From: Candidatus Ornithospirochaeta stercoripullorum
Lineage (GTDB): Bacteria; Spirochaetota; Spirochaetia; Sphaerochaetales; Sphaerochaetaceae
Length of the DNA stretch: 52,532 nucleotides
Direction: 5' to 3'
NCBI GenBank assembly: GCA_017694595.1
Contig: JADIMT010000093.1
Coordinates: 1-52,532, forward strand
The position numbers and the translations under genes are program-made. The notes beneath the pieces are model-generated. The model searched no databases. It was not told the DNA's origin and saw only the letters and a program-made list of their open reading frames with translations. Shown here piece after piece: positions 1,957 through 49,570 of this stretch. Numbering within the stretch: the first letter of the stretch is position 1; the number at the start of each line of letters is the position of its first letter.

Positions 1957-2499
1957 TTATCTCCGATAGCCTAAAAGACATTTCGTGACAATGTCCAACA
2001 GTTCTTCAGCTATCTCACTAGCTTCACGTTCCATGCCAGTGCCAAGCCACTGGAAGAAAAGCACGATACATCCACCCGTTATGAAAGCTGAGACTTGGTG
2101 CATCTCTGATTTGGACGTGAACACATAATCGCTTGAATTAAGAAACACATCCATCATCTTCCCGAACTTGTTCTGCAAGAACAGCATCGTCTCTGCATGA
2201 TGGGATGAATGGTACAATGCCAGAACAAGAGCTTTATTATTTTTTGTGTAATTGATGACATTTCTAATTATGTCTGACCAATCACCTGTGGCTTCGTCCA
2301 TGATTTTCGCAACTTCTGTATCAAATATCCACGATACAAGATCCTGAAGGCTCTTGAAATGATAGTAGAATGTATGTCGATCATATCCCGCTGTAGCTGC
2401 AATGTCTTTGACAGTTATGCGACGTGTCGGAGATTGTGACTGTAACTTTCTGTAAGCTTCTGCAAATGCTAGTTTAGTATAGTCCTCTTCCCTTTCCAT
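1957..2499 (-). CDS. TetR-family transcriptional regulator (DhaS-like C-terminal type)
   Basis: A 180-residue DNA-binding regulator. The N-terminal helix-turn-helix is clear: ITVKDIAATAGYDRHTFYYHF at about residues 27-47. The C-terminal half resembles the TetR_C_8 group, which includes DhaS and many orphan regulators; the ligand is unknown. I start it at the ATG at 2499 because this gives the usual short arm before the helix-turn-helix; an upstream ATG at 2550 lies inside a hairpin. There is no Shine-Dalgarno, but GATTAT ends exactly six bases before the ATG. It lies downstream of feoB on the same strand, with a hairpin between, and converges with the amino-acid ABC operon. Whether it controls feoB is not shown. 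Confidence 0.82.
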   Translation of the reverse strand: MEREEDYTKLAFAEAYRKLQSQSPTRRITVKDIAATAGYDRHTFYYHFKSLQDLVSWIFDTEVAKIMDEATGDWSDIIRNVINYTKNNKALVLALYHSSHHAETMLFLQNKFGKMMDVFLNSSDYVFTSKSEMHQVSAFITGGCIVLFFQWLGTGMEREASEIAEELLDIVTKCLLGYRR

Positions 2500-2550
2500 A
2501 TATTGATAATCCAGAATAAAAACGGAAAAAGCAAGAGGAGATAATTCCAT

Positions 2551-2577
2551 CTCCCGCTTTTTTTAAACAAGCGGGAG
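2551..2577 (-). other. Hairpin between feoB and the TetR gene
   Basis: A perfect 9-bp inverted repeat, CTCCCGCTT and AAGCGGGAG, with a 9-base loop follows the feoB stop by 14 bases. It is placed like a terminator for feoB, but neither strand has a T-run directly after the stem. It may act as a mRNA 3'-end stabiliser or weak terminator. Confidence 0.5.
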
Positions 2578-2591
2578 AATGTGGTTTCCCA

Positions 2592-4952
2592 TCAAACCAT
2601 GCCGAAAAGCATTCCAATCACATGCACAGCAAAGGAAGCTAGCCAAGCAACAGCGCATTGCAATATGACAACACCCAGTGCCCAACGTCTGCCAAGTTCC
2701 CTCCGTACTGTAGCGATTGCTGCTACGCAAGGAGTATAAAGCAATGTGAAGATCAAGAAGCCAAACGCAGTGAATGGCGTAAAGAGAGTGGAAAGGATGG
2801 AAGCTCCTCCGCCAAGAAGCACAGTAAGCGTGCTGACAACACTCTCTTTTGCACTGAAACCTGTGATGAGAGCTGTGCTGATTCTCCAGTCATCGAAGCC
2901 GAGAGGCTTGAATATCGGGGAAATAATGGAACCGATAGCCGCAAGCATACTTTCTGATGAATCAGAGACAGGATTGAGACGTATGTCGAAGCTTTGAAGG
3001 AACCAGATGATAATAGTCGCGAGGAAGATTATAGTGAACGCTCTGGTGACAAAATCCTTTGTCTTCTCCCATATAAGCTGGATAACCGTCTTTGCACTTG
3101 GCATTCTGTAATTAGGAAGCTCCAGAACAAATGGGACAGGGTTTCCTTTGAAACCAGTATGTTTGAGAATCAGTGAAAGCACGATGCCCATGACAATTCC
3201 TATCAGATACAGGAGAATCATCACAAGTGCCCCGTAATCTGGGAAGAATGCATATGTGAACATCGCATAAATAGGCAGCTTCGCAGAACAAGACATGAAA
3301 GGTACAAGCAGAATCGTCATCTTCCTATCACGCTCGGAGGAAAGCGTCCTTGTAGCCATGATTGCTGGTACAGAACAACCAAAACCAATCAACATTGGAA
3401 CAAAGCTTCTGCCAGATAGTCCAATCTTCCTAAGCAACTTATCCATGACAAACGAGACTCTCGCCATATAACCGCTATCCTCCAAGATGGATAGGAAGAA
3501 GAAAAGCACAACTATAATCGGAAGGAAGGAAAGAACGCTGCCGACACCAGTGAATACTCCATCGATAATCAAGGAGTGCACTACGCTATTCATTCCATAA
3601 GCTGTAAGGGCGCTATCAACCAAAGCTGTCAGCTTATCAATACCAAATGAAAGCAAATCAGACAGGAACGATCCAACAGGACCAAATGTCAGGTAGAAAA
3701 CGACTGCCATGATCAGGATGAAGGCAGGAATTGCTGTATACTTTCCTGTCAGGAATTTATCAGCTTTGAGAGAGCGCAAACGTTCCTTCGACTCATGTGG
3801 CTTTACAACGCTTTCAGCACAGACGCTCTCGATGAACCTGAATCTCGCATCAGCGAGAGCTGCGTCGCGATCCGTGCCGCTCTCAATCTCCAGCTGTTTG
3901 AGGATATGCTCGAGAGTCTCTTTCTCGTTCTCATCAAGAGAAAGTGACTTCATAATCGGCTCATCACCTTCCACAAGCTTTGAAGCTGCGAATCTGACAG
4001 GAATGCCAGCTCTCTCAGCATGATCCTGAATCAAGTGCATTATCGCATGAAGACATCGATGAATTGCGACATCCTTTGCTTCCCCTTCTGCTGGACAGAA
4101 ATCCTTCAAGCCGGGTGCTTCCTTGAAGCGTGCGACATGCTCTGCATGCTTGATCAGCTCCTCGACACCCTCATTCTTGGCAGCAGAAATAGGAACGACA
4201 GCGACACCCAAGCTCTCTTCCAGCTGGTTGACATCGATAGTACCGCCATTCTCGCGCACTTCATCCATCATGTTCAATGCAACGACAATTGGAAGCCCCA
4301 ACTCTATCAACTGCATAGTCAGATAGAGATTACGCTCTATATTAGTCGCGTCAACAATATTTATGATTCCATCAGGCTTGCCTTTGAGAATGAAATCCCT
4401 GCTTACTATCTCCTCGTTCGTATATGGGGACAGGGAGTAAATACCTGGTAAATCGACAACAGTGGCATCCTCATGTCCTCTTATTTTACCCGACTTGCTA
4501 TCAACAGTCACACCAGGGAAATTTCCGACATGCTGGTTAGATCCTGTCAGCTGATTAAAAAGCGTAGTCTTGCCACAGTTCTGGTTGCCAGCCAGCGCGA
4601 AGACAATCGGAGTGCTTTCAGGAATCAAAGGACGATCTGTAGGCTTATGTTCACAAAACTCGCCTACATGCGGGTGCTGTATCATCCTATGAGGCTCATA
4701 GGCTGTCTTGCCAACTCTGGGAGCTGCTGCTTTCTCACACTCAATCTTTGCCGCATCTTCTTTTCGCAGCGTAAGCTCATAGCCACGTATGAATATCTCC
4801 AAAGGATCTCCAAGCGGAGCTTTCTTAATAAGTGTGACAATAGTATCCGGCGTAAGTCCCATATCCAGAAAATGACGACGGAGAGCCGCGTCACCTGAAA
4901 CAGTAAGAATCTTTGCGCTCTCACCGATTGGAAGTCTATCAAGTGTCATCAT
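2592..4952 (-). CDS. feoB: Ferrous iron transporter, FeoA-FeoB fusion
   Basis: This 786-residue inner-membrane protein imports Fe(II). Residues 1-75 form a FeoA (SH3-like) domain (LDRLPIGESAKIL... HFLDMGLTP), here fused to the front of FeoB rather than being a separate gene. The G domain follows: G1 GNQNCGKTT at 122-130, G3 DLPG at 167-170, G4 NMMD at 227-230. From about residue 405 there is the polytopic membrane region with the two 'gate' repeats, including FVPMLIGFGCSVPAIMATRT. G1 has Gln and Cys where GNPNSGKT is usual. No FeoC gene follows. A TATAAT box (4970-4975) lies about 17 bases upstream of the start and a GAGAG ribosome binding site just before it. The gene stands alone, probably monocistronic. 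Confidence 0.95.
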   Translation of the reverse strand: MMTLDRLPIGESAKILTVSGDAALRRHFLDMGLTPDTIVTLIKKAPLGDPLEIFIRGYELTLRKEDAAKIECEKAAAPRVGKTAYEPHRMIQHPHVGEFCEHKPTDRPLIPESTPIVFALAGNQNCGKTTLFNQLTGSNQHVGNFPGVTVDSKSGKIRGHEDATVVDLPGIYSLSPYTNEEIVSRDFILKGKPDGIINIVDATNIERNLYLTMQLIELGLPIVVALNMMDEVRENGGTIDVNQLEESLGVAVVPISAAKNEGVEELIKHAEHVARFKEAPGLKDFCPAEGEAKDVAIHRCLHAIMHLIQDHAERAGIPVRFAASKLVEGDEPIMKSLSLDENEKETLEHILKQLEIESGTDRDAALADARFRFIESVCAESVVKPHESKERLRSLKADKFLTGKYTAIPAFILIMAVVFYLTFGPVGSFLSDLLSFGIDKLTALVDSALTAYGMNSVVHSLIIDGVFTGVGSVLSFLPIIVVLFFFLSILEDSGYMARVSFVMDKLLRKIGLSGRSFVPMLIGFGCSVPAIMATRTLSSERDRKMTILLVPFMSCSAKLPIYAMFTYAFFPDYGALVMILLYLIGIVMGIVLSLILKHTGFKGNPVPFVLELPNYRMPSAKTVIQLIWEKTKDFVTRAFTIIFLATIIIWFLQSFDIRLNPVSDSSESMLAAIGSIISPIFKPLGFDDWRISTALITGFSAKESVVSTLTVLLGGGASILSTLFTPFTAFGFLIFTLLYTPCVAAIATVRRELGRRWALGVVILQCAVAWLASFAVHVIGMLFGMV

Positions 4953-4969
4953 GTTAATCTCTCACACGG

Positions 4970-4975
4970 ATTATA
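4970..4975 (-). promoter_or_regulatory. Probable -10 box of feoB
   Basis: The minus strand reads TATAAT, 17 bases before the feoB start codon. No convincing -35 hexamer is visible at 17 bp. The gap upstream also holds the terminator of the BMP operon. Confidence 0.4.
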
Positions 4976-5014
4976 CTCAGAGAGCGGATGCTGTTCCATA
5001 GATTGCAAAGGGAA

Positions 5015-5044: not shown

Positions 5045-5062
5045 GGATAAATCAGAAGATAA

Positions 5063-10166: not shown

Positions 10167-11261
10167 TCAATCCCAAGGAAAACCGCTGAAAACTGGCTTT
10201 CCAGTATATTTGTGTGCGCTCTCCTCCCCTTTGATTACCTTCAGGACTTCACTGGCCATCTCCTCCTGCTCTACCTCTCCAGGATAGACAGAGACAGGAG
10301 CTATCCACTCCGTCCTTTCCTTGATTGCGGAGACAATATCATCGAAACGAACAAGCCCACCTGTAAGGATAATCTGATCGACATTGCCACGCAGCACAAC
10401 AGCCATTGAGCCTATCGACTTGCAGATCTGGTAAATCATCGCATTCCAGACAAGAGTCGCATGAGCATCGCCGGCATATACCATCTCATGGACTTTATCC
10501 GCATTGGATGTGCCGAAATGGCTGACGAAACCTCCTGAGCGAGAGCACATCGCCTCCAGCTCCGCAGGTGTATGACTCTCGAGATATCTGGCAACCTCCA
10601 TAAGCGGTATGCTGCCAAGCCTTGTAGGAGTGAAAGGACCATCTCCACCCGCACCTTCAGTACCGTCAATCATACGTCCATTGCTGTGCGCTGATACAGT
10701 GATACCCCCGTCAATATGGCAGACAACGAGTGAGCACTCTTCATATCTCCGGCCAATTGATTCAGCATAACGGCGGGCAACACCTTTCTGATTCAGCACA
10801 TGTGACTGCGCTCGCCTGTAGACACCTTTAAGCCCTGTGACACGAGCAAGATCAGAGAACTCATCGACATTAGTAGGATTGACTGTATACATAGGCTTTG
10901 AGTATTCAGACCCCCACTCATAAGCCATCATGACTCCAAGTTTCGCAGGATGATCGCTGCCGCCTTTATCATCCCTCGTGTCTTCATACAGCTTTCTGTC
11001 TATCGCCATTACTCCAGCACACTGTGAATACGCACAGCCACCGCGTCCGATGAACACATCGATACTCTCTATCGCTATATCATGATTTCGCAGCAAATCC
11101 AGAACGACCTGCTTACGCATCTGCATTTGATCATTCGTCGTAGTATAGGAAAGCAGCAAAGGTGCATCATGGAAGACGCTCTTCGTGAAAACCTCTGCAT
11201 CATCATCAAACACACTGACTTTAGTTGACGTCGATCCTGGATTAATTACTAAGAGTCTCAT
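10167..11261 (-). CDS. buk: Butyrate kinase (acetokinase family)
   Basis: A 364-residue enzyme that interconverts butyryl phosphate plus ADP and butyrate plus ATP. The N-terminus RLLVINPGSTSTKVSVFDD is the phosphate-binding start of the ASKHA acetate/butyrate kinase family, and later segments (VCHIDGGITVSAHSNGRM, GDGPFTPTR, LTGGL) are butyrate-kinase like. The long upstream reading to 11504 overlaps gtrA and has no family similarity, so I use the ATG at 11261. No phosphotransbutyrylase gene is adjacent, so a branched-chain acyl kinase role is also possible. The start has no Shine-Dalgarno; TGGTATTAT, an extended -10, ends six bases before ATG. Confidence 0.88.
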   Translation of the reverse strand: MRLLVINPGSTSTKVSVFDDDAEVFTKSVFHDAPLLLSYTTTNDQMQMRKQVVLDLLRNHDIAIESIDVFIGRGGCAYSQCAGVMAIDRKLYEDTRDDKGGSDHPAKLGVMMAYEWGSEYSKPMYTVNPTNVDEFSDLARVTGLKGVYRRAQSHVLNQKGVARRYAESIGRRYEECSLVVCHIDGGITVSAHSNGRMIDGTEGAGGDGPFTPTRLGSIPLMEVARYLESHTPAELEAMCSRSGGFVSHFGTSNADKVHEMVYAGDAHATLVWNAMIYQICKSIGSMAVVLRGNVDQIILTGGLVRFDDIVSAIKERTEWIAPVSVYPGEVEQEEMASEVLKVIKGEESAHKYTGKPVFSGFPWD

Positions 11262-11267
11262 ACAGCC

Positions 11268-11291
11268 ATAATACCATCTTTCAGCTATAAT
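11268..11291. promoter_or_regulatory. Back-to-back -10 boxes of buk and the GtrA-like gene
   Basis: Only 36 bases separate the two divergent start codons. The minus strand has TATTAT (11268-11273), preceded by TGG as in extended -10 promoters, ending six bases before the buk ATG. The plus strand has TATAAT (11286-11291) ending six bases before the GTG of the GtrA-like gene. Neither gene has a ribosome binding site, so transcripts would begin at or next to the start codons. Confidence 0.55.
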
Positions 11292-11297
11292 AGCGTC

Positions 11298-11696
11298 GTG
11301 AAACTTCATAAAGACTTCTTCATCTATTGTATATTCGGAGCCTTGGCTACGCTGGTGAACATGCTCAGTTATGAACTTCTGTATGCCAAACTTGGGATTG
11401 CAAATACGCTCAGTGTCATGCTCTCCTGGTTCCTTGCTGTCACATTTGCTTTTTTCACAAATAAATTCATCGTTTTCAGAGTGAAAGGAAAGAAGGAGAA
11501 GCACAGCATCCTCTCACAGCTCTTGTCATTCTATCTTTTGCGGGCAGGGAGCGGATTGCTGGATGTTATCATCATGTTCATCGCTGTAGATGTGATGGAC
11601 TGGAACCATACACTCTGGAAATTCATCTCTAATCTTGTCATGGGGCTTTGCAACTACATAGCTGGCAAACTCTTCATATTTTCCAAAGCCGAGTAA
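11298..11696 (+). CDS. GtrA-family membrane protein
   Basis: A 132-residue, four-helix integral membrane protein of the GtrA family, implicated in moving lipid-linked sugars (flippase-like) for cell-surface glycan modification. Hydrophobic segments at about 8-30, 36-56, 77-98 and 106-128 match the fold, with the family landmarks ATLVNMLSYELL and NFF-like 'AFFTNKFIVF' before the cytoplasmic basic loop. The GTG at 11298 is needed to include helix 1. There is no ribosome binding site; TATAAT ends six bases upstream. No glycosyltransferase partner is adjacent. Confidence 0.85.
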   Translation: MKLHKDFFIYCIFGALATLVNMLSYELLYAKLGIANTLSVMLSWFLAVTFAFFTNKFIVFRVKGKKEKHSILSQLLSFYLLRAGSGLLDVIIMFIAVDVMDWNHTLWKFISNLVMGLCNYIAGKLFIFSKAE

Positions 11697-14634: not shown

Positions 14635-15887
14635 GCGAGAAGAACTTTCCGCTCTCTTCCGAAAAGCTGAGAGCTTTCGCTGAGAAACATGGCACGCCGT
14701 TCCACATCTATGATGGCATCGCGATTGAAGACAGAGCAAAGAGCATGCTTGATGCTTTCTCCTGGTCTGCTGGCTTCATCAACTACTTTGCAGTGAAAGC
14801 GCTTCCGAATATCAACATACTGCGATTGCTGTACAGGGCTGGATTCGGAGCAGATTGCTCATCGCTTGCAGAGCTGTATTTGGCAAAGGAGGCTGGAATC
14901 CCATCCGAAAAGATCATGTTCTCTTCAAACGACACATCGGATGATGAGTTCAGAGAAGCTATCAGGATGGGAGTGATCCTCAATCTCGATGATGAGTCCT
15001 ACATCGATGATGTACTACGTTTGAATGGCGAACTGCCTGAAACAATCTCCTTCAGATACAATCCGGGAAGAGATAGGACTGGAAATGCCATTATAGGCAA
15101 TCCTGTGGAAGCGAAGTATGGCGTTACGCATGCTCAGCTGGCCAATTGCTACAAGAGAGCAAAAGAACTGGGCGTGAAAAGATTCTTCTTGCACACAATG
15201 GTTGCTTCCAACGAACTCAATGAAGATTACATCGTGGAAACAGCCAGGATGCTCTTCTCCCTTGTCGATGAAATCTATCAGGAAACTGGCATCAGGATCT
15301 CACAGCTCGATCTCGGCGGAGGAATAGGAATCCCCTACCGTCCTGAAGACAATGGGATCTCTTTCTATAGCCTCTCCGAAAAGATCAGGAAACTCTACGA
15401 AGAGATGATCGACAAGAAAGGATTGGGACCTGTAAGGATTTCCTTCGAATGCGGACGCGCTATAACAGGACCTTTCGGATACCTTGTCTCGAAAGTCCAG
15501 CATGTCGAACATAAATACAGGGATTACATCGGGCTCGATGCCTGCATGGCTGATCTGATGAGGCCAGGCATGTATGGTGCTTATCATCACATAACTGTCT
15601 CAGGAAAAGAGCACGCAGAAGCCAACCATGTTTATGATGTCACTGGCTCGCTTTGCGAGAACAACGATAAATTCGCTATTCAGCGCGCTCTGCCGGAAAT
15701 CGAGAGAGGAGATCTTCTCATCATCCACGACACAGGTGCTCATGGCCATTCAATGGGTTTCAACTACAATGGCAGGCTAAGACATGCTGAATACATGATA
15801 CTTGAGGATGGCATCTACAAAATCAGGAGGGATGAAAGCTATGAAGACTACATCCGCACTATGCTGAAAGAACCTGAAAAAGCCTAA
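14631..15887 (+). CDS. lysA: Diaminopimelate decarboxylase
   Basis: A 418-residue alanine-racemase-fold PLP decarboxylase that produces L-lysine from meso-diaminopimelate, last step of the pathway. PLP lysine is Lys56 in NYFAVKALPN; LDLGGGIGIPY, FECGRAITGPFGYL and GSLCENNDKFA (with the catalytic Cys) follow, and GAHGHSMGFNYNGRLR near the end is typical of LysA. Overlaps dapL by four bases. The operon lacks dapF (epimerase), which must be elsewhere. Its TAA stop overlaps the convergent XdhC-family stop. Confidence 0.93.
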   Translation: MSEKNFPLSSEKLRAFAEKHGTPFHIYDGIAIEDRAKSMLDAFSWSAGFINYFAVKALPNINILRLLYRAGFGADCSSLAELYLAKEAGIPSEKIMFSSNDTSDDEFREAIRMGVILNLDDESYIDDVLRLNGELPETISFRYNPGRDRTGNAIIGNPVEAKYGVTHAQLANCYKRAKELGVKRFFLHTMVASNELNEDYIVETARMLFSLVDEIYQETGIRISQLDLGGGIGIPYRPEDNGISFYSLSEKIRKLYEEMIDKKGLGPVRISFECGRAITGPFGYLVSKVQHVEHKYRDYIGLDACMADLMRPGMYGAYHHITVSGKEHAEANHVYDVTGSLCENNDKFAIQRALPEIERGDLLIIHDTGAHGHSMGFNYNGRLRHAEYMILEDGIYKIRRDESYEDYIRTMLKEPEKA

Positions 15888-17377
15888 TTCCCCTGAGAGA
15901 AGAAGGAATCGACAACTTCCAGGACACTTCCGGCAATCGCCATCGCTTTGTCGGAAGGTGTTTTGTATTCAGCCTTTTCACCCCGCGGGTCGACATCAGC
16001 AATCTTGAAGCCGGCAGTGACACGTAGCCCAGAACGAAGCATGCCGCGCACCATCCCATCTATCTCGCTTTTCTGTGGAATATCATCGACAAAAGCTATT
16101 GTCTCACCCTTTTTCACGATATCGCCAAAAGTGCGCAATGAGCGGAAAACGCCAGAGGCATTGCTTCTGATCACGCGCTCTGAAGTATATCCTGCAATAT
16201 TTCCAGGGATGCCCGTGTTAGGAGCCGCACTGCCTTTTCTGATGATTCTCCCCAGGTTATGCCCCCTCTGTGTCTCGATGACAGCATCCGCGTCATCGGG
16301 AGCTGTAAAGCCTGGACCTAGAGCAATGACCAGTGGTGCCATATCAGCACAAGTACCCAGATTCTTTTTTGCAATAATCGCATCAATTACAACAGCAGGA
16401 TTCAGGACAGAGACTGCTTTTGCTTCCGGGTCCACAAGCACAGGGATGGAGCCTTCATCAAAGACATGAAATGCATCCTCTGCCCTCTCTATCAGGACAG
16501 CACGGATACCATCGACAACCTGCTCTTTCTCATAGACAGCTTCCGCGAAGCTCACATTGCGCCGTACCTGAGTCGGCTGTGATGTTTCCAGAGCTAGCAC
16601 ATCATATCCAGCTCGCTTTAGCCGTATGATTGTTCCAGTTGCAAGATCCCCCGCGCCACGCACGATTATAAGCCGCCTGAGTCTTTCACATTCCGGTTTT
16701 CCGCTCCGCTTCTTGTATTTCATCAGGATTTCAGCGGCTACAGCTACAGCCATCTCCTCCGGCGTCTCAGCCCCGATATCAAGGCCCATTGGTACAGAGA
16801 CACCTTTTGAAGGTACAACGCGTGAACGTGAAGAGAGGACTCCTACATAAAACGCTTTTGAGCAATCAAGCAATGAGAGAATCATGCTGCTATCATGTGT
16901 TGTGATGATTACAGCTGAGAATGAGTCGACAGAAAGCGAGGCAAGCACCTCTTCCCAGCTATCTTCCACATGTACTTCAGCTGCGAATGGACACTCAACA
17001 GCGCGTGTATCATAGATGTAAAGCGCAAAGCCTATCTCATAAAGCGTCTTGCTGATAGCCTTGCCCACATGACCATATCCGATCACAATCGCCCGTTTAG
17101 GGGCCTTCACTACATCAATCATCAGTTCAACTGTACCTCTGCCAGAATTCACAGCAATCTTTCTTCCCATTCCCGCTTTAATAGCTTCCAATGCCTCTGC
17201 CTTAGCTTTTTCCTCTATCAGATGTCCTCCGATTGTAGAGACAATCCTTCCACTTTCATCAACAAGCATGCGACCGCTCCTGCGTGGAGTCACACCGCTT
17301 GTACCAATGATAGTCACAATAGCGAAGGCAAGATTAAGCCGTTCCAGCTCAGAGGCTGCATAGAAGAGCGAATCCAT
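15884..17377 (-). CDS. XdhC-YqeB fusion, molybdenum-hydroxylase maturation factor (selenium-dependent type)
   Basis: A protein of about 497 residues with two modules. The first (to about residue 240) is XdhC/CoxI: an N-terminal domain with GTSGVTPRRSGRMLVDESG and a Rossmann domain with VIGYGHVGKA. The second matches the YqeB/EF2563 family of 'selenium-dependent molybdenum hydroxylase' accessory proteins (LIIVRGAGDLATGTIIRLKR, ETSQPTQVRR, ALGPGFTAPDDADAVIET). The likely role is sulfuration or insertion of molybdopterin into a xanthine-dehydrogenase-like enzyme; none is in the window. I start at the ATG at 17377, which matches the XdhC N-terminus and has TACAAT six bases upstream; ATGs at 17392 and 17449 are possible. 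Convergent with lysA, four-base overlap. Confidence 0.85.
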   Translation of the reverse strand: MDSLFYAASELERLNLAFAIVTIIGTSGVTPRRSGRMLVDESGRIVSTIGGHLIEEKAKAEALEAIKAGMGRKIAVNSGRGTVELMIDVVKAPKRAIVIGYGHVGKAISKTLYEIGFALYIYDTRAVECPFAAEVHVEDSWEEVLASLSVDSFSAVIITTHDSSMILSLLDCSKAFYVGVLSSRSRVVPSKGVSVPMGLDIGAETPEEMAVAVAAEILMKYKKRSGKPECERLRRLIIVRGAGDLATGTIIRLKRAGYDVLALETSQPTQVRRNVSFAEAVYEKEQVVDGIRAVLIERAEDAFHVFDEGSIPVLVDPEAKAVSVLNPAVVIDAIIAKKNLGTCADMAPLVIALGPGFTAPDDADAVIETQRGHNLGRIIRKGSAAPNTGIPGNIAGYTSERVIRSNASGVFRSLRTFGDIVKKGETIAFVDDIPQKSEIDGMVRGMLRSGLRVTAGFKIADVDPRGEKAEYKTPSDKAMAIAGSVLEVVDSFFSQGN

Positions 17378-17383: not shown

Positions 17384-17389
17384 ATTGTA
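17384..17389 (-). promoter_or_regulatory. Candidate leaderless -10 box of the XdhC-YqeB gene
   Basis: TACAAT on the minus strand ends six bases before the ATG at 17377, and no Shine-Dalgarno is present. No good -35 hexamer is visible. Confidence 0.35.
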
Positions 17390-20747: not shown

Positions 20748-23312
20748 TCAGCAGGTCGCCCCACCAACAACAGTCTTGTTCAAGATTGCTTCCTTGTCAA
20801 TGCTGGAAGAGAAGAGCTTCTCTTCTACGTACTCAAGACCAAGACGATTGACAGTATCAGCGAAACGCTCACCACTCTTGCCTTCATCTCTGAAGAGAAG
20901 AATAGCATTCTCTATTGTCTTGATCACTTCCTCTTCGCTTGTAAGCACTCTCGAGAGCCTCTTGCCAAGCTCTATCTTCTTACCCCAGCGACCACCGACG
21001 TAGATTGCATAGCCAGTAGTATAATGCGCAGTAACTCCAAATGGACATTTGTCGAGGCATCTTCCGCAATGGTTGCATTCATCTGCCTTCACAACCAGCT
21101 TCCCATCAGCTACTTGAGCAGTCTTTATCGGGCAGGAATTGACTACCTGACACACTTTGCATCCACGGCATCTGCCATAATCGAAATCGATAAGACGCTG
21201 TCCAATGATTCCTATATCATTCAAGCTTGGCTTCACGCAGTTGTTGGGACAACCGCCAACAGCAATCTTGAATTTATGGGGCAGCGATACATTATGCCAG
21301 CCTTCGTAGAAGATGTTATGAAGCTTCTCGGAAAGCTCGAATGTATCAATCAGACCATACTGGCAAGTAGTACCTTTGCAAGAGACGACTGGACGCACTT
21401 TGCTTCCCGTTCCACCAGTCTCTAGGCCATGTTCCTTCAGGAAAACAATCAAGTTTTCGATGTTATCATAGAGAACATCCTGGATTTCCAGCGTGAGACG
21501 TGTCGTCATAGTCACTTCTCCAGATCCAAATCGCTTGGCTGCTTCCGCTACCACAATCTGTTCATCCGCTGTGAGCTTTCCATTTCTGGTGATTACACGG
21601 ACATTGAAATGATCCGGCATCCTCTTATCCTGCAAACAGCCAAGTCCTTTGACCCTTTTCACTTCCTCTGGAGGAATCACAGAACCGAAATCAACTCTCA
21701 CATCATTGAATGTAATGCCACCTTCAAGGACTTTCGTATTCGTATAACCATAGTGCTTCAATCTGTTCTGAAGGAAGTAACCTCGCTTACCACGTGCACA
21801 GACAAGGAGCAGCTTTTCATCTTTATCAAGCCCCTTGACAGGACCATTGACGCTTCCAAGATTAACCCAGAAAGCACCCGGTATAGTCTTTTCAGGCATA
21901 ACATCGACAACTTTATACCCTCTCGCTCTCGTCTGAGCGTATTCAGATGGCGACATTGTCACAAACTCGCCTGAAATCTTATTCTCAAGAATATTGCAGA
22001 CTTGCACAAATGGTGAAATGGCTGTTGAGAAAGGTGGAGCATAGGAGAAATCCATCGTGTCAAAATCCTCTACTCTCATTCCCTGCGAGACAGCTACAAC
22101 AGCTATATCGTTCATTTTATCCACATTGCCGCTGCCCAGCACCTGGAAGCCTAGTATGCGATGCGTCTTACGCTCCGCAATCATCTTCATGATGAAGAAT
22201 GATGAATCTGGATAGTAATGAGCTTTGTCATCAGCAACAGCCACAACAGAGATCACATCATAGCCATTCTGCTTAGCGCTCTCCTCCGTAAGTCCTGTGC
22301 GTGCCGCATTGAGGTTGTCAAAAAGCTTTACCACACCAGTACCAATAGCCCCTGGGTACTCCGCATGCTTTCCTACAAGATTCTTTGCAAGCACACGCCC
22401 CGAGATATTAGCAGTAGAGCCCATTGCACTATACATACTCTTGCCTGTAATTCGGTTAATAACAAGCGCACAGTCACCAGCGGCATAGACATCGCTGATG
22501 TTCGTGCTCATATCTGGAGCAGTCACAATAGCTCCCTTCTCCATATTCAGTGCAGTGCCCGCAAGGAAAGCTGTAGCAGGTCTGACACCAAGAGCAAGAA
22601 CCACCAGATCAGCATTCAGAGTACTTTTATCAGTTTTGACGCCGCTGGCTTTTTCCTCTCCTTCAATAGCTTCAAGATGCGTATTTGTCATGATATGAAA
22701 GCCAGCTTCTTCCATGCGCTTTCTGGCCCATGAAGCCATCTCATCATCGAAAGCATTCGGCATGATATTGCCAGCCACATCGATGACAGTCACTGAAATG
22801 CCATCTTTTCTGAGATTCTCTGCTGTCTCAAGCCCAATGAATCCAGCGCCAACAACAACGGCGTTCTTCACATTGTTGCCTCTCCCATACGCTCTGATTC
22901 TCTCTGCGTCATCTGGAGTCCGCAGCGTGAACACGCCTTCCAAGCCAGTACCAGGAAGAGGAGGGACGATGCTCTCAGCACCTGTTGCTATAACAAGTTT
23001 GTCGTAGCAGACATTCTCTTCTTTTCCATCCTTGATATATGTAACACTCTTTTGGATAAAATCCACAGCAGTTGCTTCTGCTTCAGTGATGACACTGACA
23101 CCAGTCAGCGCAGAAAACTTCTCAGGAGTATTGACGATAAGGTCACTGCGGTTTTCTATCACTCCGCTGATGAAATATGGAAGGCCACATCCAGCATATG
23201 AGATATCTTTGCCTTTAGTGATGATGCACACTTCAGCACTTCTATCTTCCCTCTTTAGTTTTGCAGCGACTTTCGTCCCAGCTGCGACACCACCAATAAC
23301 CAGTACTTTCAT
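20748..23312 (-). CDS. CoA-disulfide reductase/rhodanese/sirohaem reductase/ferredoxin fusion
   Basis: An 854-residue cytoplasmic redox enzyme with four modules. Residues 1-445: FAD/NAD(P)H pyridine-nucleotide disulfide oxidoreductase of the CoA-disulfide reductase type (GGVAAGTKVA, single redox Cys42 in SYAGCGLPY, second nucleotide site VVVGAGFIGLE). Residues 455-545: rhodanese with active loop Cys505 (LLVCARGKRG). Residues 555-705: half sulfite/nitrite-reductase module with a sirohaem/[4Fe-4S] cysteine set, Cys645-x4-Cys650 and Cys688-x3-Cys692 (VGGCPNNC). Residues 712-760: two [4Fe-4S] ferredoxin clusters (Cys715, 718, 721, 727; 746, 749, 752, 756). Likely reduces persulfide/polysulfide or sulfite; exact substrate unknown. 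No Shine-Dalgarno; TACAAT lies seven bases upstream. Precedes the FecCD-type importer. Confidence 0.9.
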   Translation of the reverse strand: MKVLVIGGVAAGTKVAAKLKREDRSAEVCIITKGKDISYAGCGLPYFISGVIENRSDLIVNTPEKFSALTGVSVITEAEATAVDFIQKSVTYIKDGKEENVCYDKLVIATGAESIVPPLPGTGLEGVFTLRTPDDAERIRAYGRGNNVKNAVVVGAGFIGLETAENLRKDGISVTVIDVAGNIMPNAFDDEMASWARKRMEEAGFHIMTNTHLEAIEGEEKASGVKTDKSTLNADLVVLALGVRPATAFLAGTALNMEKGAIVTAPDMSTNISDVYAAGDCALVINRITGKSMYSAMGSTANISGRVLAKNLVGKHAEYPGAIGTGVVKLFDNLNAARTGLTEESAKQNGYDVISVVAVADDKAHYYPDSSFFIMKMIAERKTHRILGFQVLGSGNVDKMNDIAVVAVSQGMRVEDFDTMDFSYAPPFSTAISPFVQVCNILENKISGEFVTMSPSEYAQTRARGYKVVDVMPEKTIPGAFWVNLGSVNGPVKGLDKDEKLLLVCARGKRGYFLQNRLKHYGYTNTKVLEGGITFNDVRVDFGSVIPPEEVKRVKGLGCLQDKRMPDHFNVRVITRNGKLTADEQIVVAEAAKRFGSGEVTMTTRLTLEIQDVLYDNIENLIVFLKEHGLETGGTGSKVRPVVSCKGTTCQYGLIDTFELSEKLHNIFYEGWHNVSLPHKFKIAVGGCPNNCVKPSLNDIGIIGQRLIDFDYGRCRGCKVCQVVNSCPIKTAQVADGKLVVKADECNHCGRCLDKCPFGVTAHYTTGYAIYVGGRWGKKIELGKRLSRVLTSEEEVIKTIENAILLFRDEGKSGERFADTVNRLGLEYVEEKLFSSSIDKEAILNKTVVGGATC

Positions 23313-23319: not shown

Positions 23320-23325
23320 ATTGTA
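23320..23325 (-). promoter_or_regulatory. Candidate leaderless -10 box of the redox fusion gene
   Basis: TACAAT on the minus strand ends seven bases before the ATG at 23312; TTTTCA lies 17 bp further upstream (23343-23348) as a four-of-six -35 match. No ribosome binding site is present. Confidence 0.4.
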
Positions 23326-33027: not shown

Positions 33028-33028
33028 T

Positions 33029-41376: not shown

Positions 41377-42186
41377 TTAGAGTATATGTTCCTTCCTGTA
41401 TTCCTTTGGCGTTACGCCTGCAATAAGCTTGAACTGATGGGAGAAGCTATACTGATCTGGATAGCTGAGCTTATCTGCGCATTCTGCACAGTTATACCCC
41501 ATGGAAAGCAACTGTTTAGCTTTCTCAACTCTGCATCTGAGCCTATATTGCTGCGGAGGAAGCCCATAATTTTCTGAAAATGCTTTACGGAAGGTGCTAT
41601 AACTCATCGAATGGTTGTTAGCAATCTCCTCAAGTGATGTCGAGAAGTCAACTTCAAGCCTTGCTTTCGCTTCCCGCAGACTTGCGGCCTTTCCTTCCAT
41701 CGTATAAGGAGAGAGCACATAAAGCATATAGCGCTCAACAACCGGAAGAAGCGAGAAGAATGTCTCATCACAGGTCTCTTTTATATGTTTCAGCACAAGC
41801 AAGAAGCTATCAAAACACTTTTCAATGTTCACAGCGCTTTGCACTGCAGGCACTTTAAGCAGATTCGGATGCAATTGCAAGTAGATTGCAAAAAGCTCAT
41901 CCGGAATGACTATATAGCATCGTCTATGAAACACTTGAGATGAAAGGGAAAGTTTGTAATCCATTCGCTTGTGGCGGAAGAGAATCGTACCTGGAATTAT
42001 TTCATATTGCACATTCCCGACCTGTATAATCCCATTCCCTGAAATGACAAGCGTGAGTACCATGCCATCATCCGTTGATGATGTACGATTAATACTCTCC
42101 CTATTGCAGCTGACACCTGCAAAAAGCCGACCATTAAGCGTTGAAGCGTATTCACTAGCGTGACAATCTATCCAGCTGTAATCCAT
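41377..42186 (-). CDS. AraC-family transcriptional regulator
   Basis: A 269-residue regulator. The N-terminal cupin-like domain (about 10-130: GNGIIQVGNVQYEIIPGTIL) senses a small molecule, probably a sugar, and the C-terminal 100 residues carry two helix-turn-helices (LEEIANNHSMSYSTFRKAF; ECADKLSYPDQYSFSHQFK followed by GVTPKEYRK). I start at the ATG at 42186; the frame extends to 42237 without similarity. No Shine-Dalgarno; TATGAT ends six bases before the start. Divergent from the FAD-oxidoreductase operon, which it likely controls. Confidence 0.88.
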   Translation of the reverse strand: MDYSWIDCHASEYASTLNGRLFAGVSCNRESINRTSSTDDGMVLTLVISGNGIIQVGNVQYEIIPGTILFRHKRMDYKLSLSSQVFHRRCYIVIPDELFAIYLQLHPNLLKVPAVQSAVNIEKCFDSFLLVLKHIKETCDETFFSLLPVVERYMLYVLSPYTMEGKAASLREAKARLEVDFSTSLEEIANNHSMSYSTFRKAFSENYGLPPQQYRLRCRVEKAKQLLSMGYNCAECADKLSYPDQYSFSHQFKLIAGVTPKEYRKEHIL

Positions 42187-42192
42187 GTAAAT

Positions 42193-42198
42193 ATCATA
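42193..42198 (-). promoter_or_regulatory. Candidate leaderless -10 box of the AraC-type gene
   Basis: TATGAT on the minus strand ends exactly six bases before the ATG at 42186, with no ribosome binding site between. Confidence 0.4.
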
Positions 42199-42229
42199 TT
42201 TGACAAATTGAAAGACGAAAAGCACATTC

Positions 42230-45317: not shown

Positions 45318-45342
45318 TAGATAACAGCTGATGGAGAGGATT

Positions 45343-46233: not shown

Positions 46234-46235
46234 TC

Positions 46236-47066
46236 ATGTTCCAGAAAACATTAGCGTTCAGAATATTCTTTGCCATCTCAGCACTCCTTATCGGATGCTT
46301 TGTCTTCCTGCCGCTTCTGTGGCTCATAAACACAGCACTGAAACCAAGCGATGAGACATTCTCACTCTACTTCTTCTTCGGCCCTCTCACGCTTGAAAAC
46401 ATAAAAGCGATACTGACAGACAGCACAATCATGAACTATCTCAAGAACTCCCTGATAGTCTCATTTCTCTCCAGTTTCTTTGCAACGCTAGTATCTGCAT
46501 TTGCAGGTTATAGCTTCTCGAAGTTCCGTTACACTGGAAGGAAAGTCATCATGGGAGCATTCATGATGAGCCAGGCATTTCCACAAGCTATACTTCTGCT
46601 GTCAATATATCTTATGATGCAGAAACTTGGCTTGCTGGGTTCTTACTGGTCCCTGCTGATCAGTTACGTCGTCTTCACGCTTCCTGTAGGTACATGGACG
46701 CTGAAAGGCTACTTCGATGCACTCCCCGACTCGCTCATTGAAAGCGCGAAGATTGATGGAGCTGGCCATTTGAAAATCATGAGGAAGATTATCTTCCCAA
46801 TGGCCGTTCCGGGCATGATTTCAATCGCTATTTATGGCTTTGTCTGGTCGTGGAACGACTTGCTCTACTCTATGACACTCGTTACAGATCCATCAAGGCG
46901 TACACTCGCTCCAGGCCTTGTCATGACATATCTGGGAGAAGCCAGCACAAACTGGTCTGCGATGATGTCAGCATCAATTGTCGCAGCCATTCCAGTAACC
47001 ATCATCTTCATATTCTTGCAAAGATACTTCATTGCAGGATTAACAAGCGGAGCTGTAAAAGAATGA
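46236..47066 (+). CDS. Sugar ABC transporter permease (MalG-type, second importer)
   Basis: A 276-residue six-helix CUT1 permease with the coupling motif IESAKIDGAGHLKIMRKIIFP and MalG-like C-terminus YFIAGLTSGAVKE. It starts two bases after the preceding permease stop with AAGGAGTCGGAG upstream. Last gene of the oxidoreductase operon; a hairpin follows. Confidence 0.93.
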   Translation: MFQKTLAFRIFFAISALLIGCFVFLPLLWLINTALKPSDETFSLYFFFGPLTLENIKAILTDSTIMNYLKNSLIVSFLSSFFATLVSAFAGYSFSKFRYTGRKVIMGAFMMSQAFPQAILLLSIYLMMQKLGLLGSYWSLLISYVVFTLPVGTWTLKGYFDALPDSLIESAKIDGAGHLKIMRKIIFPMAVPGMISIAIYGFVWSWNDLLYSMTLVTDPSRRTLAPGLVMTYLGEASTNWSAMMSASIVAAIPVTIIFIFLQRYFIAGLTSGAVKE

Positions 47067-47101
47067 ATGGAAAATCTGGGAATTATTCCTCAAAAGCTGC
47101 A

Positions 47102-47122
47102 GAGCCTGTACAACGCAGGCTC
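47102..47122. terminator. Hairpin between convergent genes, likely bidirectional terminator
   Basis: GAGCCTG (47102-47108) and CAGGCTC (47116-47122) form a perfect 7-bp stem between the permease stop and the convergent oleate hydratase stop. T-tracts are short on both sides. The same arm sequence makes the terminator at 1924. Confidence 0.6.
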
Positions 47123-47132
47123 CGCATTAGTT

Positions 47133-48908
47133 TCAGATAGCGCCATACTTCTTCAGAAGCTTCTCGATATCCGATCCTTGTATACGTTTCAAACCTTCCT
47201 TCATCACCAGTTTCTCTTTGAGTCCCAGATCGATATCTGTAAGCTTAGAGCCGTCACGAAGCGCAACGGATGCATGGACGAGATCCCTGACATCAAACAT
47301 GCTGCCCCATACCTCAGGAACGCCTCTATCAACTTTCATCAATGTGTAAACAGCTTCCATAGCAGTCCTGATTGAGTATTCTGTCGTGAATATCGTATCA
47401 CGTTCTGTTTCCGCGAACTGCCCTATGAATGCGAAGTTCACAGCACCTGCGGGAACAACATAAGGCCTGTCTCCCAATGCACGTGGCATGAAAAATGCTG
47501 TGATATAAGGCATCATGCATGGGACAGTATTGCAGCTTTTCTCCGCAAGTTCAGGAATAGCTGCTTCTGGCACTCCAATATGATAAAGCCACTCCATAGC
47601 AATCTCTTTGCCAGTGCATTCACACATCGGCTTTTTGACAAAATCACCAGGAACAAATGGGAAAAGGCCATAAATCCAGCCTACAAGCTCATCTTTTTTC
47701 TGTTCCCTGAACTGGGGTTGCCTGTTGAAAGTCCAACTCAGCAACCAGGATGAATCCTTCGCAGTCACAATACCACCAGTGACTACTTTGCCTGAGTATG
47801 GATTACGCTTTGCGATCTTCTCAATATAAGGAACAACACTGCTGTCCTTAAGGGTCACTGTCGCACTCATCCAGGTAGTCTTCTCCGGTTCTGAACAGAA
47901 TTTCTCAGGATGGCCGAAATCATCTGACTGAGCAGCAATCCGCTTCCATAAATCCCAACCACCGCCTTTTCTGAGCTCTGGCAAATATTCAGCCTTGCCA
48001 TTCTGGCTTCCAAGCGTACTATTCTCAACACAGCCTCCGGGTGTGATGAATAGCAAATCATCATCTGAAAGCAATATATCCCGTTCTCCATCCCTGTCCT
48101 GGATGGTTATCGAAGAAGCATGCTTAATGCCATCTACGATCCTGAACTTGATATCAGTGACTTTAGTCTCCGTGACAATATCAACATGATGATTCTCCAG
48201 ATACCTTTGCAATGGCAAAATCATAGATTCATACTGATTGTATTTTGTGAATCGCAGTGCTGAGAAATCGGGAAGCCCTTCTACGTGATGAATATATCTT
48301 CTGATATAAATCTTCATCTCCAAAGCCGAATGCCAATTCTCAAAAGCGAACATAGTACGCCAGTAAAGCCAGAAATTGCTATTAAGAACTTCATCGGAAA
48401 AGACATCTTCTATAGTCTTGTCATAAAGGGCTTCATCCGGTGTGAAGAACAATTTCATTATCTCAAGCTGAGCTTTGTCCGAGAGAGCGAATTTCCTATC
48501 CGTATGCCCATCCTCTCCCCTGTTCATCGTGGCTCGCATCAATGAATAGTTTGGGTCATCTTTGTTGAGATAATAATACTCGTCAAGTACGCTCATGCCC
48601 TCGTTCTCTATAGATGGAATAGAACGATAGAGATCCCACATGCATTCGAAATGGTTATCCATCTCGCGTCCACCACGCATGACATAGCCGAGGCCTTCGT
48701 AATTCCAGCCATCACAGGCACCACCCAGAATAGGATCTTTCTCAATGATATGGACTTTGCTGCCATCTACATAAGCATCCCGAACAAGGAAAGCCGCTGC
48801 AGATAACGCCGCAAGCCCTGAGCCGATTATATATGCAGATTTCTTCTCTGCACCCTCTGGCTTTCTTGGTCTGACGAAAGCCTCATAGTTTCCACTAGAG
48901 TGATACAT
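47133..48908 (-). CDS. ohyA: Oleate hydratase (MCRA family)
   Basis: A 591-residue FAD-dependent enzyme, formerly 'myosin-cross-reactive antigen', that hydrates cis-9 double bonds of unsaturated fatty acids to 10-hydroxy acids, helping detoxify them in gut bacteria. FAD-binding IIGSGLAALSAAAF is at 27-40, HIIEKDPILGGACDGW at about 53-68 and the catalytic Glu82 lies in RGGREMDNHFECMWDLY. LRFTKYNQYESMILPL and CECTGKEI further support it. Length is typical. CAGGAGGAG lies before the ATG. It follows its TetR regulator by 89 bases on the same strand. Confidence 0.95.
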   Translation of the reverse strand: MYHSSGNYEAFVRPRKPEGAEKKSAYIIGSGLAALSAAAFLVRDAYVDGSKVHIIEKDPILGGACDGWNYEGLGYVMRGGREMDNHFECMWDLYRSIPSIENEGMSVLDEYYYLNKDDPNYSLMRATMNRGEDGHTDRKFALSDKAQLEIMKLFFTPDEALYDKTIEDVFSDEVLNSNFWLYWRTMFAFENWHSALEMKIYIRRYIHHVEGLPDFSALRFTKYNQYESMILPLQRYLENHHVDIVTETKVTDIKFRIVDGIKHASSITIQDRDGERDILLSDDDLLFITPGGCVENSTLGSQNGKAEYLPELRKGGGWDLWKRIAAQSDDFGHPEKFCSEPEKTTWMSATVTLKDSSVVPYIEKIAKRNPYSGKVVTGGIVTAKDSSWLLSWTFNRQPQFREQKKDELVGWIYGLFPFVPGDFVKKPMCECTGKEIAMEWLYHIGVPEAAIPELAEKSCNTVPCMMPYITAFFMPRALGDRPYVVPAGAVNFAFIGQFAETERDTIFTTEYSIRTAMEAVYTLMKVDRGVPEVWGSMFDVRDLVHASVALRDGSKLTDIDLGLKEKLVMKEGLKRIQGSDIEKLLKKYGAI

Positions 48909-48997
48909 AAACTCCTCCTGACATCAAACTACAGAGGAGCATGAAATTCTTGTATTTACAGGAAAGTCTCTTTGTAAGGATTCCTTGCACACACAGC

Positions 48998-49558
48998 TTA
49001 CTGTAAGGAAGAAAAACGCCCAGCAGCATTCTCAAAGCTTCCAGCCATGACACACTCAATACGTTTTATCATAAGCTCTGGTTTCTCTCTCATTCCACTG
49101 CCAATCCAATCAAGCATGACCCCGATAAAAGCATACGAATAGAAGGAGGCTATGAAAAACATCTCATCGTCCTTTAGCTTCTTCTGCACAGTAGCCTCTT
49201 TCAGCACAGAAAGAAGAAGTTCAGTCACAGGACCCGTCAGGCTTCTTTCCAACTGCTCTCTGCTCATTGAGTTGTAGACATTGAAGACAAAGACATGGTT
49301 TTTCTCTACAGCCTGGAACACAGAAAGAAAGCCATCCTGCCATGTGTCATGAGTTTTCCTCCCTGAAAGGATGATTGCAATATCCGAAGAGATTATCCAG
49401 CCAACAAGATCATAGATATCTCTGAAATGGTAATAGAATGTCATACGGCTTATGCCACACTCTGCTGCGATATCCATCACAGTCACTCGAGAGAGTGGTT
49501 TCTCCATCAACAATCTTTTAAGGGCATCTGCAATAGCTTTACGGGTAATATCACTCAC
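48998..49558 (-). CDS. TetR-family regulator upstream of oleate hydratase
   Basis: A 186-residue TetR-type protein of the TetR_C_8/DhaS-like group. The helix-turn-helix is VTVMDIAAECGISRMTFYYHF near residues 24-44. Homologues normally begin SDITRKAIA, which corresponds to the GTG at 49558, not the upstream GTG at 49576. There is no ribosome binding site; TATAAT ends six bases before this GTG and TTGTTA lies 16 bp further up. Likely controls the oleate hydratase gene, perhaps sensing fatty acids (inference from position). Confidence 0.87.
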   Translation of the reverse strand: MSDITRKAIADALKRLLMEKPLSRVTVMDIAAECGISRMTFYYHFRDIYDLVGWIISSDIAIILSGRKTHDTWQDGFLSVFQAVEKNHVFVFNVYNSMSREQLERSLTGPVTELLLSVLKEATVQKKLKDDEMFFIASFYSYAFIGVMLDWIGSGMREKPELMIKRIECVMAGSFENAAGRFSSLQ

Positions 49559-49564
49559 AACTCT

Positions 49565-49570
49565 ATTATA
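49565..49570 (-). promoter_or_regulatory. Candidate leaderless promoter -10 of the TetR/ohyA operon
   Basis: Minus strand TATAAT followed by AGAGTT and then the GTG start; TTGTTA 16 bp upstream is a four-of-six -35 match. The layout is the same as at the GtrA-like gene (TATAAT-AGCGTC-GTG). Confidence 0.5.

What the first reader, a model, noticed from the sequence alone, without database searches (positions are those of the whole stretch)
2497..49570. Seven genes with a -10 hexamer ending six or seven bases before the start codon and no Shine-Dalgarno
Seen directly: GATTAT-N6-ATG (TetR at 2499), TATTAT-N6-ATG (buk, 11261), TATAAT-N6-GTG (GtrA-like, 11298), TACAAT-N6-ATG (XdhC-YqeB, 17377), TACAAT-N7-ATG (redox fusion, 23312), TATGAT-N6-ATG (AraC, 42186), TATAAT-N6-GTG (TetR, 49558). 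All lack a ribosome binding site, while many other genes here have strong AAGGAG sites. With a -10 this close, transcription would start at or next to the start codon, so these mRNAs should be leaderless. The arrangement is well known in Deinococcus and actinobacteria; widespread use in spirochaetes would be notable. Several of the seven are regulators or single redox/accessory genes.
Basis: partly seen in the sequence, partly recalled or inferred. Interest (0 to 1): 0.72.

Follow-up and report, generated by a model that had tools for sequence, protein, structure and literature searches.

The report
Leaderless gene starts in gut spirochaetes
In these uncultured gut spirochaetes roughly one in eight genes that begin a transcription unit seems to have its promoter so close to the start codon that the message should begin at the first codon without a ribosome-binding leader; this looks real and conserved, but it is a mode of gene start already known in other bacteria, another spirochaete included.

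Summary
All seven hexamers sit where stated and none of the seven starts has a Shine-Dalgarno site; TetR 2499 has GATTAT, not TAnnnT, and five starts lie inside longer ORFs. In a 586-kb sample (29%) a -10 motif 6-8 nt before the start marks 36 of 233 first-in-unit genes, against a mean of 6.1 at far spacings (12-17 at 14-18 nt, unexplained), and 3 of 131 operon-internal genes. Ten congeners give 24 of 169 against 5.2; a mostly clostridial set gives 3 of 242. The 60 hexamers, chosen without looking further upstream, carry a -35 at 16-18 bp or a TGn extension in 50 of 60 (controls 128 of 645). Among aligned orthologues the motif stays at 6-8 nt in buk 32 of 45, TetR 49558 16 of 17, AraC 9 of 9, but not in most XdhC-YqeB and redox copies. 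Best reading: sigma70 promoters whose +1 is the start codon, giving leaderless mRNAs; no RNA was seen. Novelty is modest: predicted in some spirochaetes in 2011, mapped in Leptospira in 2017. Freshest detail: head-to-head pairs, buk/GtrA among them, with both starts of this type.

The parts
2506..2511 (-). -10-like GATTAT, 6 nt before TetR/DhaS-like ATG 2499; TTGCTT at 2529-2534 (17-bp spacer) as -35
   Evidence: Of 11 aligned rows, nine (L251, the window's own copy, and L252-L259) show by eye TTGCYT (TTGCTC in L254) 17-18 bp before an [GC]ATxxT hexamer at 6-7 nt; L260 and L261 do not. Below the PWM threshold in 9 of 9 counted rows, so weaker
1957..2499 (-). TetR-family regulator (TetR_N + TetR_C_8), proposed leaderless
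11268..11273 (-). -10 TATTAT with TGn extension, 6 nt before buk ATG 11261
   Evidence: motif at 6-8 nt in 32 of 45 distinct spirochaete rows (own copy included), other spacings 0-5; 32 of 48 when three further spirochaete loci, all SD-led, are counted
10167..11261 (-). butyrate kinase (buk), proposed leaderless
   Evidence: NCBIfam TIGR02707 position 2 aligns to residue 84 of the long ORF, i.e. residue 3 from 11261
11286..11291 (+). -10 TATAAT, 6 nt before GtrA-like GTG 11298; forms with the buk promoter a 36-bp head-to-head region
   Evidence: 7 of 9 rows (own copy included) have a -10 at 6-8 nt
11298..11696 (+). GtrA/DPMS transmembrane protein, proposed leaderless, GTG start
17384..17389 (-). 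-10 TACAAT, 6 nt before XdhC-YqeB ATG 17377
   Evidence: closest relative L222 has TAGAAT-N6-ATG, where the TAG of the hexamer is an in-frame stop, so its ORF cannot start further upstream; 17 of 28 rows have an SD instead
15884..17377 (-). XdhC-YqeB fusion, proposed leaderless (least certain of the seven)
23320..23325 (-). -10 TACAAT, 7 nt before redox-fusion ATG 23312
   Evidence: 3 of 12 rows (own copy included) have the -10 at 6-8 nt; of the other nine, 3 pass the SD threshold and 6 pass neither
20748..23312 (-). CoA-disulfide-reductase-like / rhodanese / sulfite-reductase-like fusion, proposed leaderless
   Evidence: profile starts at residue 1; Pfam domains
42193..42198 (-). -10 TATGAT, 6 nt before AraC ATG 42186, inside a TTGTCAAATATGATA block
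   Evidence: 9 of 9 rows (own copy included) have a -10 at 6-8 nt
41377..42186 (-). AraC-family regulator, proposed leaderless
49565..49570 (-). -10 TATAAT, 6 nt before TetR GTG 49558; TTGTTA at 49587-49592 (16-bp spacer) as -35
   Evidence: 16 of 17 rows (own copy included; relatives of at least 50% identity)
48998..49558 (-). TetR/DhaS-like regulator, proposed leaderless, GTG start
   Evidence: TIGR02366 position 2 aligns to residue 9 of the long ORF, i.e. residue 3 from 49558

Best explanation
The hexamers are -10 elements of ordinary sigma70 promoters placed so that transcription begins at, or 1-2 nt before, the first base of the start codon. Six bases between the -10 and the codon put +1 exactly on it. 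The mRNAs of these genes are therefore leaderless, and their 5'-terminal AUG or GUG is read without a Shine-Dalgarno site, presumably by 70S ribosomes or 30S with IF2 and initiator tRNA (recalled mechanism). The same genome uses SD sites at many other genes, and orthologues can move between the two states. About 11-14% of genes that begin a transcription unit in the two genus samples use the leaderless arrangement. Shown by sequence: geometry, excess over decoys, -35/TGn, restriction to first genes, conservation for several genes. Inferred: the TSS, and translation of the leaderless mRNA.
For: Own genome: 36 of 233 first genes against a mean of 6.1 (maximum 8) at spacings 0-3 and 20-29; inner genes 3 of 131. 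Ten congeners: 24 of 169 against 5.2 (maximum 10). Buk loci of 42 spirochaete contigs with buk-like genes removed: 50 of 323 against 13.8 (maximum 20). Excess is 11-14% of first genes for PWM thresholds 3-5 and 7-8% at threshold 6; 60 column-permuted motifs give a mean of 13 (maximum 45, from permutations that nearly restore the motif) against 60 of 402. Without selection for it, a -35 sits at 16-18 bp in 36 of 60 (control 80 of 645), at exactly 17 bp in 24 of 60 (27 of 645), TGn in 22 of 60 (58 of 645), either in 50 of 60 (128 of 645). Spacing N6 is commonest: 36 of 60. Fixed-start orthologue test, own copy included, PWM above 4: buk 32 of 45, TetR 49558 16 of 17, AraC 9 of 9, GtrA 7 of 9, against 0-5, 0-2, 0-1 and 0-2 at other spacings. 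A mostly clostridial set of buk loci shows no peak (3 of 242, decoy mean 8.7), though its G+C is higher (0.53 against 0.45).
Against: No RNA data. Three of the seven (GtrA, XdhC-YqeB, AraC) have no clear -35 or TGn of their own. TetR 2499 fails the -10 PWM threshold in 9 of 9 rows. XdhC-YqeB has the motif in only 3 of 18 rows and could start further upstream. The redox gene is of this type in only 3 of 12 rows. More distant TetR 49558 relatives (L319, L320, L322, about 43% identity) do not show the motif at 6 nt by eye and were outside the count. Related sequences are not independent. Gene calls are from a home-made codon model that misses short genes, including four of the seven. A smaller bump at windows 14-18 in the own genome (12-17 genes), outside the decoy windows, is not explained. 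The control for -35/TGn is dominated by coding DNA.
Confidence: 0.88

Rival explanations
1. AT-rich upstream DNA and wrongly placed start codons create TAnnnT by chance at this distance.
For: The bare pattern TANNNT-N6-ATG is no more frequent in the window than in shuffles (26 against 31.8); five of the seven starts are uncertain by ORF length alone.
Against: The peak is at 6-8 nt with shoulders only in overlapping windows, and is absent in inner genes and in the clostridial set; -35/TGn excess; fixed-start orthologues of four genes.
Confidence: 0.03
2. The hexamers are real sequence features but the genes are mainly read from leadered transcripts that start further upstream; the A/T-rich stretch just before the codon keeps the mRNA unstructured or binds ribosomal protein S1.
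For: Redox fusion and TetR 2499 have same-strand ORFs that end 99 and 92 nt upstream, so read-through is possible; an S1 reading of AT-rich upstream biases in non-SD genes has been discussed (PMC5397173, passages).
Against: An S1 or structure effect does not predict TATAAT-like order (permuted motifs), a 17-bp-spaced -35, TGn, or absence from operon-internal genes.
Confidence: 0.07
3. The promoters drive short transcripts whose true start codon is a later in-frame codon with an SD.
For: Possible in principle where N-termini are variable, e.g. XdhC-YqeB.
Against: buk, redox and TetR 49558 N-termini match family profile starts; in the start choice an SD at any plausible candidate could win, and did not for the genes filed as TA.
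Confidence: 0.02

Closest known systems
TA-led (leaderless) genes of bacteria, Zheng et al. 2011 (PMC3160421; outline and passages seen)
   Same: TANNNT about 12 nt before the start, read as a -10 with TSS at the start codon; reported in 6 of 18 spirochaete genomes, mean 3.9% (1.8-6.9) of genes
   Different: That survey used genomes available in 2011, and whether any member of this family was among them was not seen; here the excess is about 30 of 364 called genes (8%), with -35/TGn, first-gene and orthologue tests added
Leptospira interrogans leaderless mRNAs by dRNA-seq (PMC5243855; passages seen)
   Same: A spirochaete with many leaderless mRNAs: 430-450 genes with TSS within 10 nt, 184 and 170 exactly at the start (30 and 37 C)
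   Different: Experimental, and a distant spirochaete; its passages say that motifs other than sigma54 were not identified
Leaderless genes of Deinococcus and Mycobacterium (1174 and 505 mRNAs as quoted in PMC5243855; shares from PMC3160421 passages)
   Same: -10 placed to put +1 on the start codon
   Different: Higher shares there (about 20% of genes in Actinobacteria and 40% in Deinococcus-Thermus in Zheng 2011)
Bidirectional promoters of Escherichia coli (PMC12825309; start of abstract and two passages seen)
   Same: Two divergent transcripts from one short region
   Different: There divergent TSSs lie most often 18, or 10 or 23, bp apart on pseudo-symmetrical DNA; here the inferred TSSs are about 35-112 bp apart with separate -10s, and the mRNAs would be leaderless

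Membership tests
TA-led leaderless genes of bacteria | -10-like hexamer whose last base lies 6-8 nt before the start codon, above background | tested here: met
   36 of 233 own first genes against 6.1; 24 of 169 congener genes against 5.2
TA-led leaderless genes of bacteria | no Shine-Dalgarno site at the same start | tested here: met
   best SD score -3.4 to 0.8 for the seven; for the 60 this is partly by construction, since a start is filed as TA only if the -10 outscores the SD
TA-led leaderless genes of bacteria | hexamer behaves as a promoter element (-35 or extended -10 at proper distance) | tested here: met
   as a class: 50 of 60 against 128 of 645 controls; of the seven, buk (TGn), TetR 2499, TetR 49558 and redox (-35-like) have one, GtrA, XdhC-YqeB and AraC not clearly
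TA-led leaderless genes of bacteria | found at genes that begin a transcription unit, not inside operons | tested here: met
   inner genes 3 of 131, 3 of 116, 3 of 167
TA-led leaderless genes of bacteria | transcript 5' end at the start codon | not testable with these tools
TA-led leaderless genes of bacteria | leaderless mRNA is translated from its 5'-terminal codon | not testable with these tools
   no ribosome or proteome data
Bidirectional promoters (E. coli type) | divergent TSSs about 10, 18 or 23 bp apart on shared pseudo-symmetrical elements | tested here: not met
   buk and GtrA starts (inferred TSSs) are 37 bp apart with two separate -10s

The most novel reading that the evidence does not exclude
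In this genus leaderless initiation lets head-to-head genes share an intergenic region made of little more than two interlocked sigma70 promoters. Start codons can have as little as 34-50 bp between them, so that the -35 position of one gene lies on or against the -10 of the other (buk/GtrA in the window by position only, L166 12538/12587 with real -35 elements). Neither mRNA has a UTR and the two polymerases should exclude each other: a mutually exclusive switch with all control at the promoter. Genes pass between this state and SD-leadered start during evolution.
Probability: 0.3. Interest if true: 0.55.

Novelty: new member of a known kind. Interest (0 to 1): 0.42.

Why it matters
It extends leaderless starts, with comparative evidence, to a large lineage of mostly uncultured gut spirochaetes. 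Gene callers that expect an SD may misplace starts in these genomes, those of regulators included. Orthologues in which the same start codon is leaderless in one species and SD-led in another (redox fusion, TetR 49558, buk) are natural experiments on how genes move between the two modes. The compact divergent pairs make a testable model of promoter exclusion without any UTR.

Tried and rejected
Raw pattern count in the window: not enriched, uninformative without gene starts. Functional bias: Pfam scans of the 60 TA-led and a random 60 of 165 SD-led first genes show no regulator excess among the 25 commonest families listed of 123 and 85 (TA: CarD twice; SD: arginine repressor twice, substrate-binding proteins and several core enzymes); single-member families were mostly not shown, so this is a weak test. 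A codon-adaptation comparison gave no clear difference (medians 0.660 and 0.665, P 0.09), and its reference set was poor: three SD-led genes of L011, of which only ribosomal protein S7 is an obvious high-expression gene. Coupling of two leaderless genes in divergent pairs: 7 of 83 pairs against 5.3 expected, P 0.28, so no coupling beyond independence. 16S anti-SD could not be checked because the assembly gave no 16S match. Spread outside the family is weak: eight genomes of other families pooled give 15 of 203 at 6-8 nt and 18-19 in the windows starting at 4 and 5, against 4-14 in the other windows. Within the family: two g21 genomes pooled 7 of 51 (decoy 1.3), G066 6 of 58 (1.5), G048 2 of 53 (1.0). 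These samples are small.

Rows left out before the orthologue counts: matches from locus ranges other than those listed for each gene, identity below a cut-off (37-60% by gene), starts not alignable within 8 residues, identical 50-nt upstream repeats, and for buk the clostridial loci and four spirochaete loci, L112, L125, L129 (all SD-led) and L145 (no N-terminus). XdhC-YqeB loci were held for 30 of the 114 genomes with a match.
Full report
What was checked. The window is contig C72 of a 2.04-Mb, 113-contig, 83%-complete metagenome-assembled genome. The nearest loci in named genomes are titled uncultured Spirochaetales or Spirochaetaceae and, once, Candidatus Ornithospirochaeta. NCBI places that genus in Spirochaetaceae.

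The seven sites. All seven hexamers and spacings are as described and none of the seven starts has an SD site. GATTAT at TetR 2499 departs from TAnnnT. Five of the seven starts lie inside longer ORFs. Profile alignments fix the starts of buk (11261), the redox fusion (23312) and TetR (49558). AraC 42186 and TetR 2499 are supported by relatives, and XdhC-YqeB 17377 by one close relative (L222), in which the TAG of the TAGAAT hexamer, 6 nt before the ATG, is an in-frame stop.

Is it more than chance? I wrote a simple gene finder (codon-pair model, start choice by coding score plus SD or -10 score) and ran it on the window plus 40 stretches, 586 kb of the own genome. It called 405 genes, of which 233 first-in-unit and 131 operon-internal genes had a neighbour upstream and enough upstream DNA; the rest were left out. 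'First' means not within 40 nt of a same-strand gene. With a generic sigma70 -10 matrix, 36 of 233 first genes had the motif 6-8 nt before the start, against a mean of 6.1 and maximum of 8 for windows at 0-3 and 20-29; windows at 9-13 gave 6-7 and those at 14-18 gave 12-17, a second bump that I cannot explain; inner genes gave 3 of 131. Ten other genomes of the genus (20 stretches, 400 kb) gave 24 of 169 against 5.2, without that second bump. Loci around buk on 42 spirochaete contigs (genus not checked for each), with 53 buk-like genes removed by a loose filter, gave 50 of 323 against 13.8. A mostly clostridial set from the same search, of higher G+C, gave 3 of 242 against 8.7. Thresholds of 3, 4 and 5 give an excess of 11-14% of first genes, and threshold 6 gives 7-8%. 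Sixty column-permuted matrices gave a mean of 13, the highest (45) being a near copy of the motif, against 60 for the true one in 402 genes. The raw string is not enriched in the window at large.

Are they promoters? The 60 starts (36 own, 24 congener) were chosen on the hexamer, its distance and the gene model only. Aligned on the hexamer, they show T 78%, T 62%, G 38% at the -35 place with the peak at a 17-bp spacer, and T 52%, G 58% as TGn before the hexamer. A -35 at 16-18 bp is present in 36 of 60 against 80 of 645 control sites; TGn in 22 of 60 against 58 of 645; either in 50 of 60 against 128 of 645. Controls are hexamers at the same distance before ATG/GTG codons that are not candidate gene starts, mostly in coding DNA. 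N6, which puts +1 on the start codon, is the commonest spacing: 36 of 60, with N7 16 and N8 8.

Are they conserved? With the start fixed by alignment, and the window's own copy counted as one row, the motif (score above 4) lies at 6-8 nt in 32 of 45 buk, 16 of 17 TetR 49558, 9 of 9 AraC, 7 of 9 GtrA, 3 of 12 redox, 3 of 18 XdhC-YqeB and 0 of 9 TetR 2499 rows. Rows dropped inside the script were 3, 0, 1, 2, 3, 11 and 2; further exclusions are listed under Tried and rejected. Other spacings gave 0-5, 0-2, 0-1 and 0-2 for the first four. Counting three more spirochaete buk loci, all SD-led, gives 32 of 48 with the motif, 8 SD, 8 neither. TetR 2499 rows fail the matrix because the first base of the hexamer is C or G, but nine of 11 rows (L251-L259, L251 being the window) show by eye TTGCYT (TTGCTC in one) 17-18 bp before an [CG]ATxxT hexamer at 6-7 nt. 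In redox relatives the -10 lies at 15-17 nt in 3 rows and at 18-20 nt in 4, and 3 of 12 pass the SD threshold. XdhC-YqeB rows mostly have an SD (17 of 28). One TetR 49558 relative (L307) and 8 of 48 buk rows are SD-led, and several clostridial buk homologues show AAGAAGG-type sites by eye. So the same start codon is used in one mode in one species and in the other mode in another.

AraC detail, read by eye. Relatives L279-L284 carry TTGTCAAATATGATA or a variant of it upstream, and its TTGTCA is a -35 spaced 16-17 bp from TATCAT, TATAAT or (L284) GATAAT, which lies 6-7 nt before the start. In the window and L277-L278 the intervening stretch is absent and the TATGAT inside the same block is itself at 6 nt. 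The leaderless geometry has survived a rebuilt promoter.

Genome context. TA-led first genes are more often divergent from their neighbour than SD-led ones (42 of 60 against 60 of 165, Fisher P 9e-6) and sit in shorter divergent gaps as called (median 104 against 249). A search independent of the gene finder for head-to-head ORFs of at least 100 codons, no more than 120 bp apart and both with the motif at 6-8 nt, found 4 pairs in the own sample, 6 in the congener sample and 8 rows (7 distinct pairs) in the buk loci, but none in 400 kb of three other family genera or in the clostridial set, and 1 in other families; eight decoy windows gave 4 in total in the own sample and none in the congener and buk sets. 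That the ORFs are genes was not checked one by one, and far decoy windows have less room. buk and GtrA start 37 bp apart; two relatives keep the pair with 34 and 39 bp between the codons (L081, L090). Both-TA pairs are no commoner than independence predicts (7 of 83 against 5.3), so they look like a consequence of compact leaderless promoters and not a dedicated device.

What is known. Zheng 2011 read TANNNT about 12 nt before starts as leaderless genes and lists 6 of 18 spirochaete genomes, mean 3.9%, range 1.8-6.9 (passages). Leptospira interrogans dRNA-seq reports 430-450 genes with a TSS within 10 nt and 184 or 170 exactly at the start (passages). A 2021 paper on gene starts quotes leaderless transcription as predicted in 21.6% of bacterial species (PMC9581028, passages). 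A search of the held library for papers with both Sphaerochaeta and leaderless returned none, and one for two of Ornithospirochaeta, Sphaerochaetaceae and Shine-Dalgarno returned only a chicken-gut survey (listing only). Searches for divergent leaderless pairs showed nothing on point in the listed titles (15 of 635, 8 of 39). The finding is thus a new lineage for a known mode of gene start, with an estimated excess of about 30 of 364 called genes (8%) in this genome, near or slightly above the range of Zheng 2011; methods differ, so the comparison is rough.

Limits. No RNA or protein data. Gene calls are home-made and miss short genes, among them four of the seven. The own sample is 29% of an incomplete assembly. 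Samples of other genera and families are small. Orthologue rows are related and not independent.

Noticed in passing
window 11261-11298: Head-to-head buk and GtrA genes whose start codons have 36 bp between them, holding two opposed -10 hexamers; the same layout with diverged sequence in L081 (34 bp) and L090 (39 bp).
   Followed up: partly
L166 12538-12587: 48-bp divergent region in a congener in which each promoter's -35 (TTGCAA, TTGCCC, both 17-bp spacers, read by eye) abuts the other's -10, with both genes apparently leaderless.
   Followed up: partly
window 42192-42206 and L279-L284: AraC promoters share a TTGTCAAATATGATA-like block that supplies a -35 in some relatives and the -10 itself in the window; it may also be an operator.
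   Followed up: partly
window 20748-23312: 854-aa fusion of CoA-disulfide-reductase-like, rhodanese and sulfite-reductase-like 4Fe-4S domains. Seven genomes of the genus match end to end at 61-79% identity, while four others match only residues 1 to about 540 at 68-71%.
   Followed up: no
window 10167-11261: The closest butyrate kinases outside the spirochaetes are mostly clostridial at 65-69% identity, which suggests transfer between these groups; several of these show SD-like AAGAAGG upstream by eye.
   Followed up: no
window 2592-4952: FeoA and FeoB domains lie in one 786-aa ORF directly upstream of the TetR gene at 2499.
   Followed up: no
own sample, windows 14-18 nt before starts: A smaller bump of -10 motifs (12-17 of 233) in the own genome, not seen in the congener sample; perhaps misplaced starts.
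   Followed up: no
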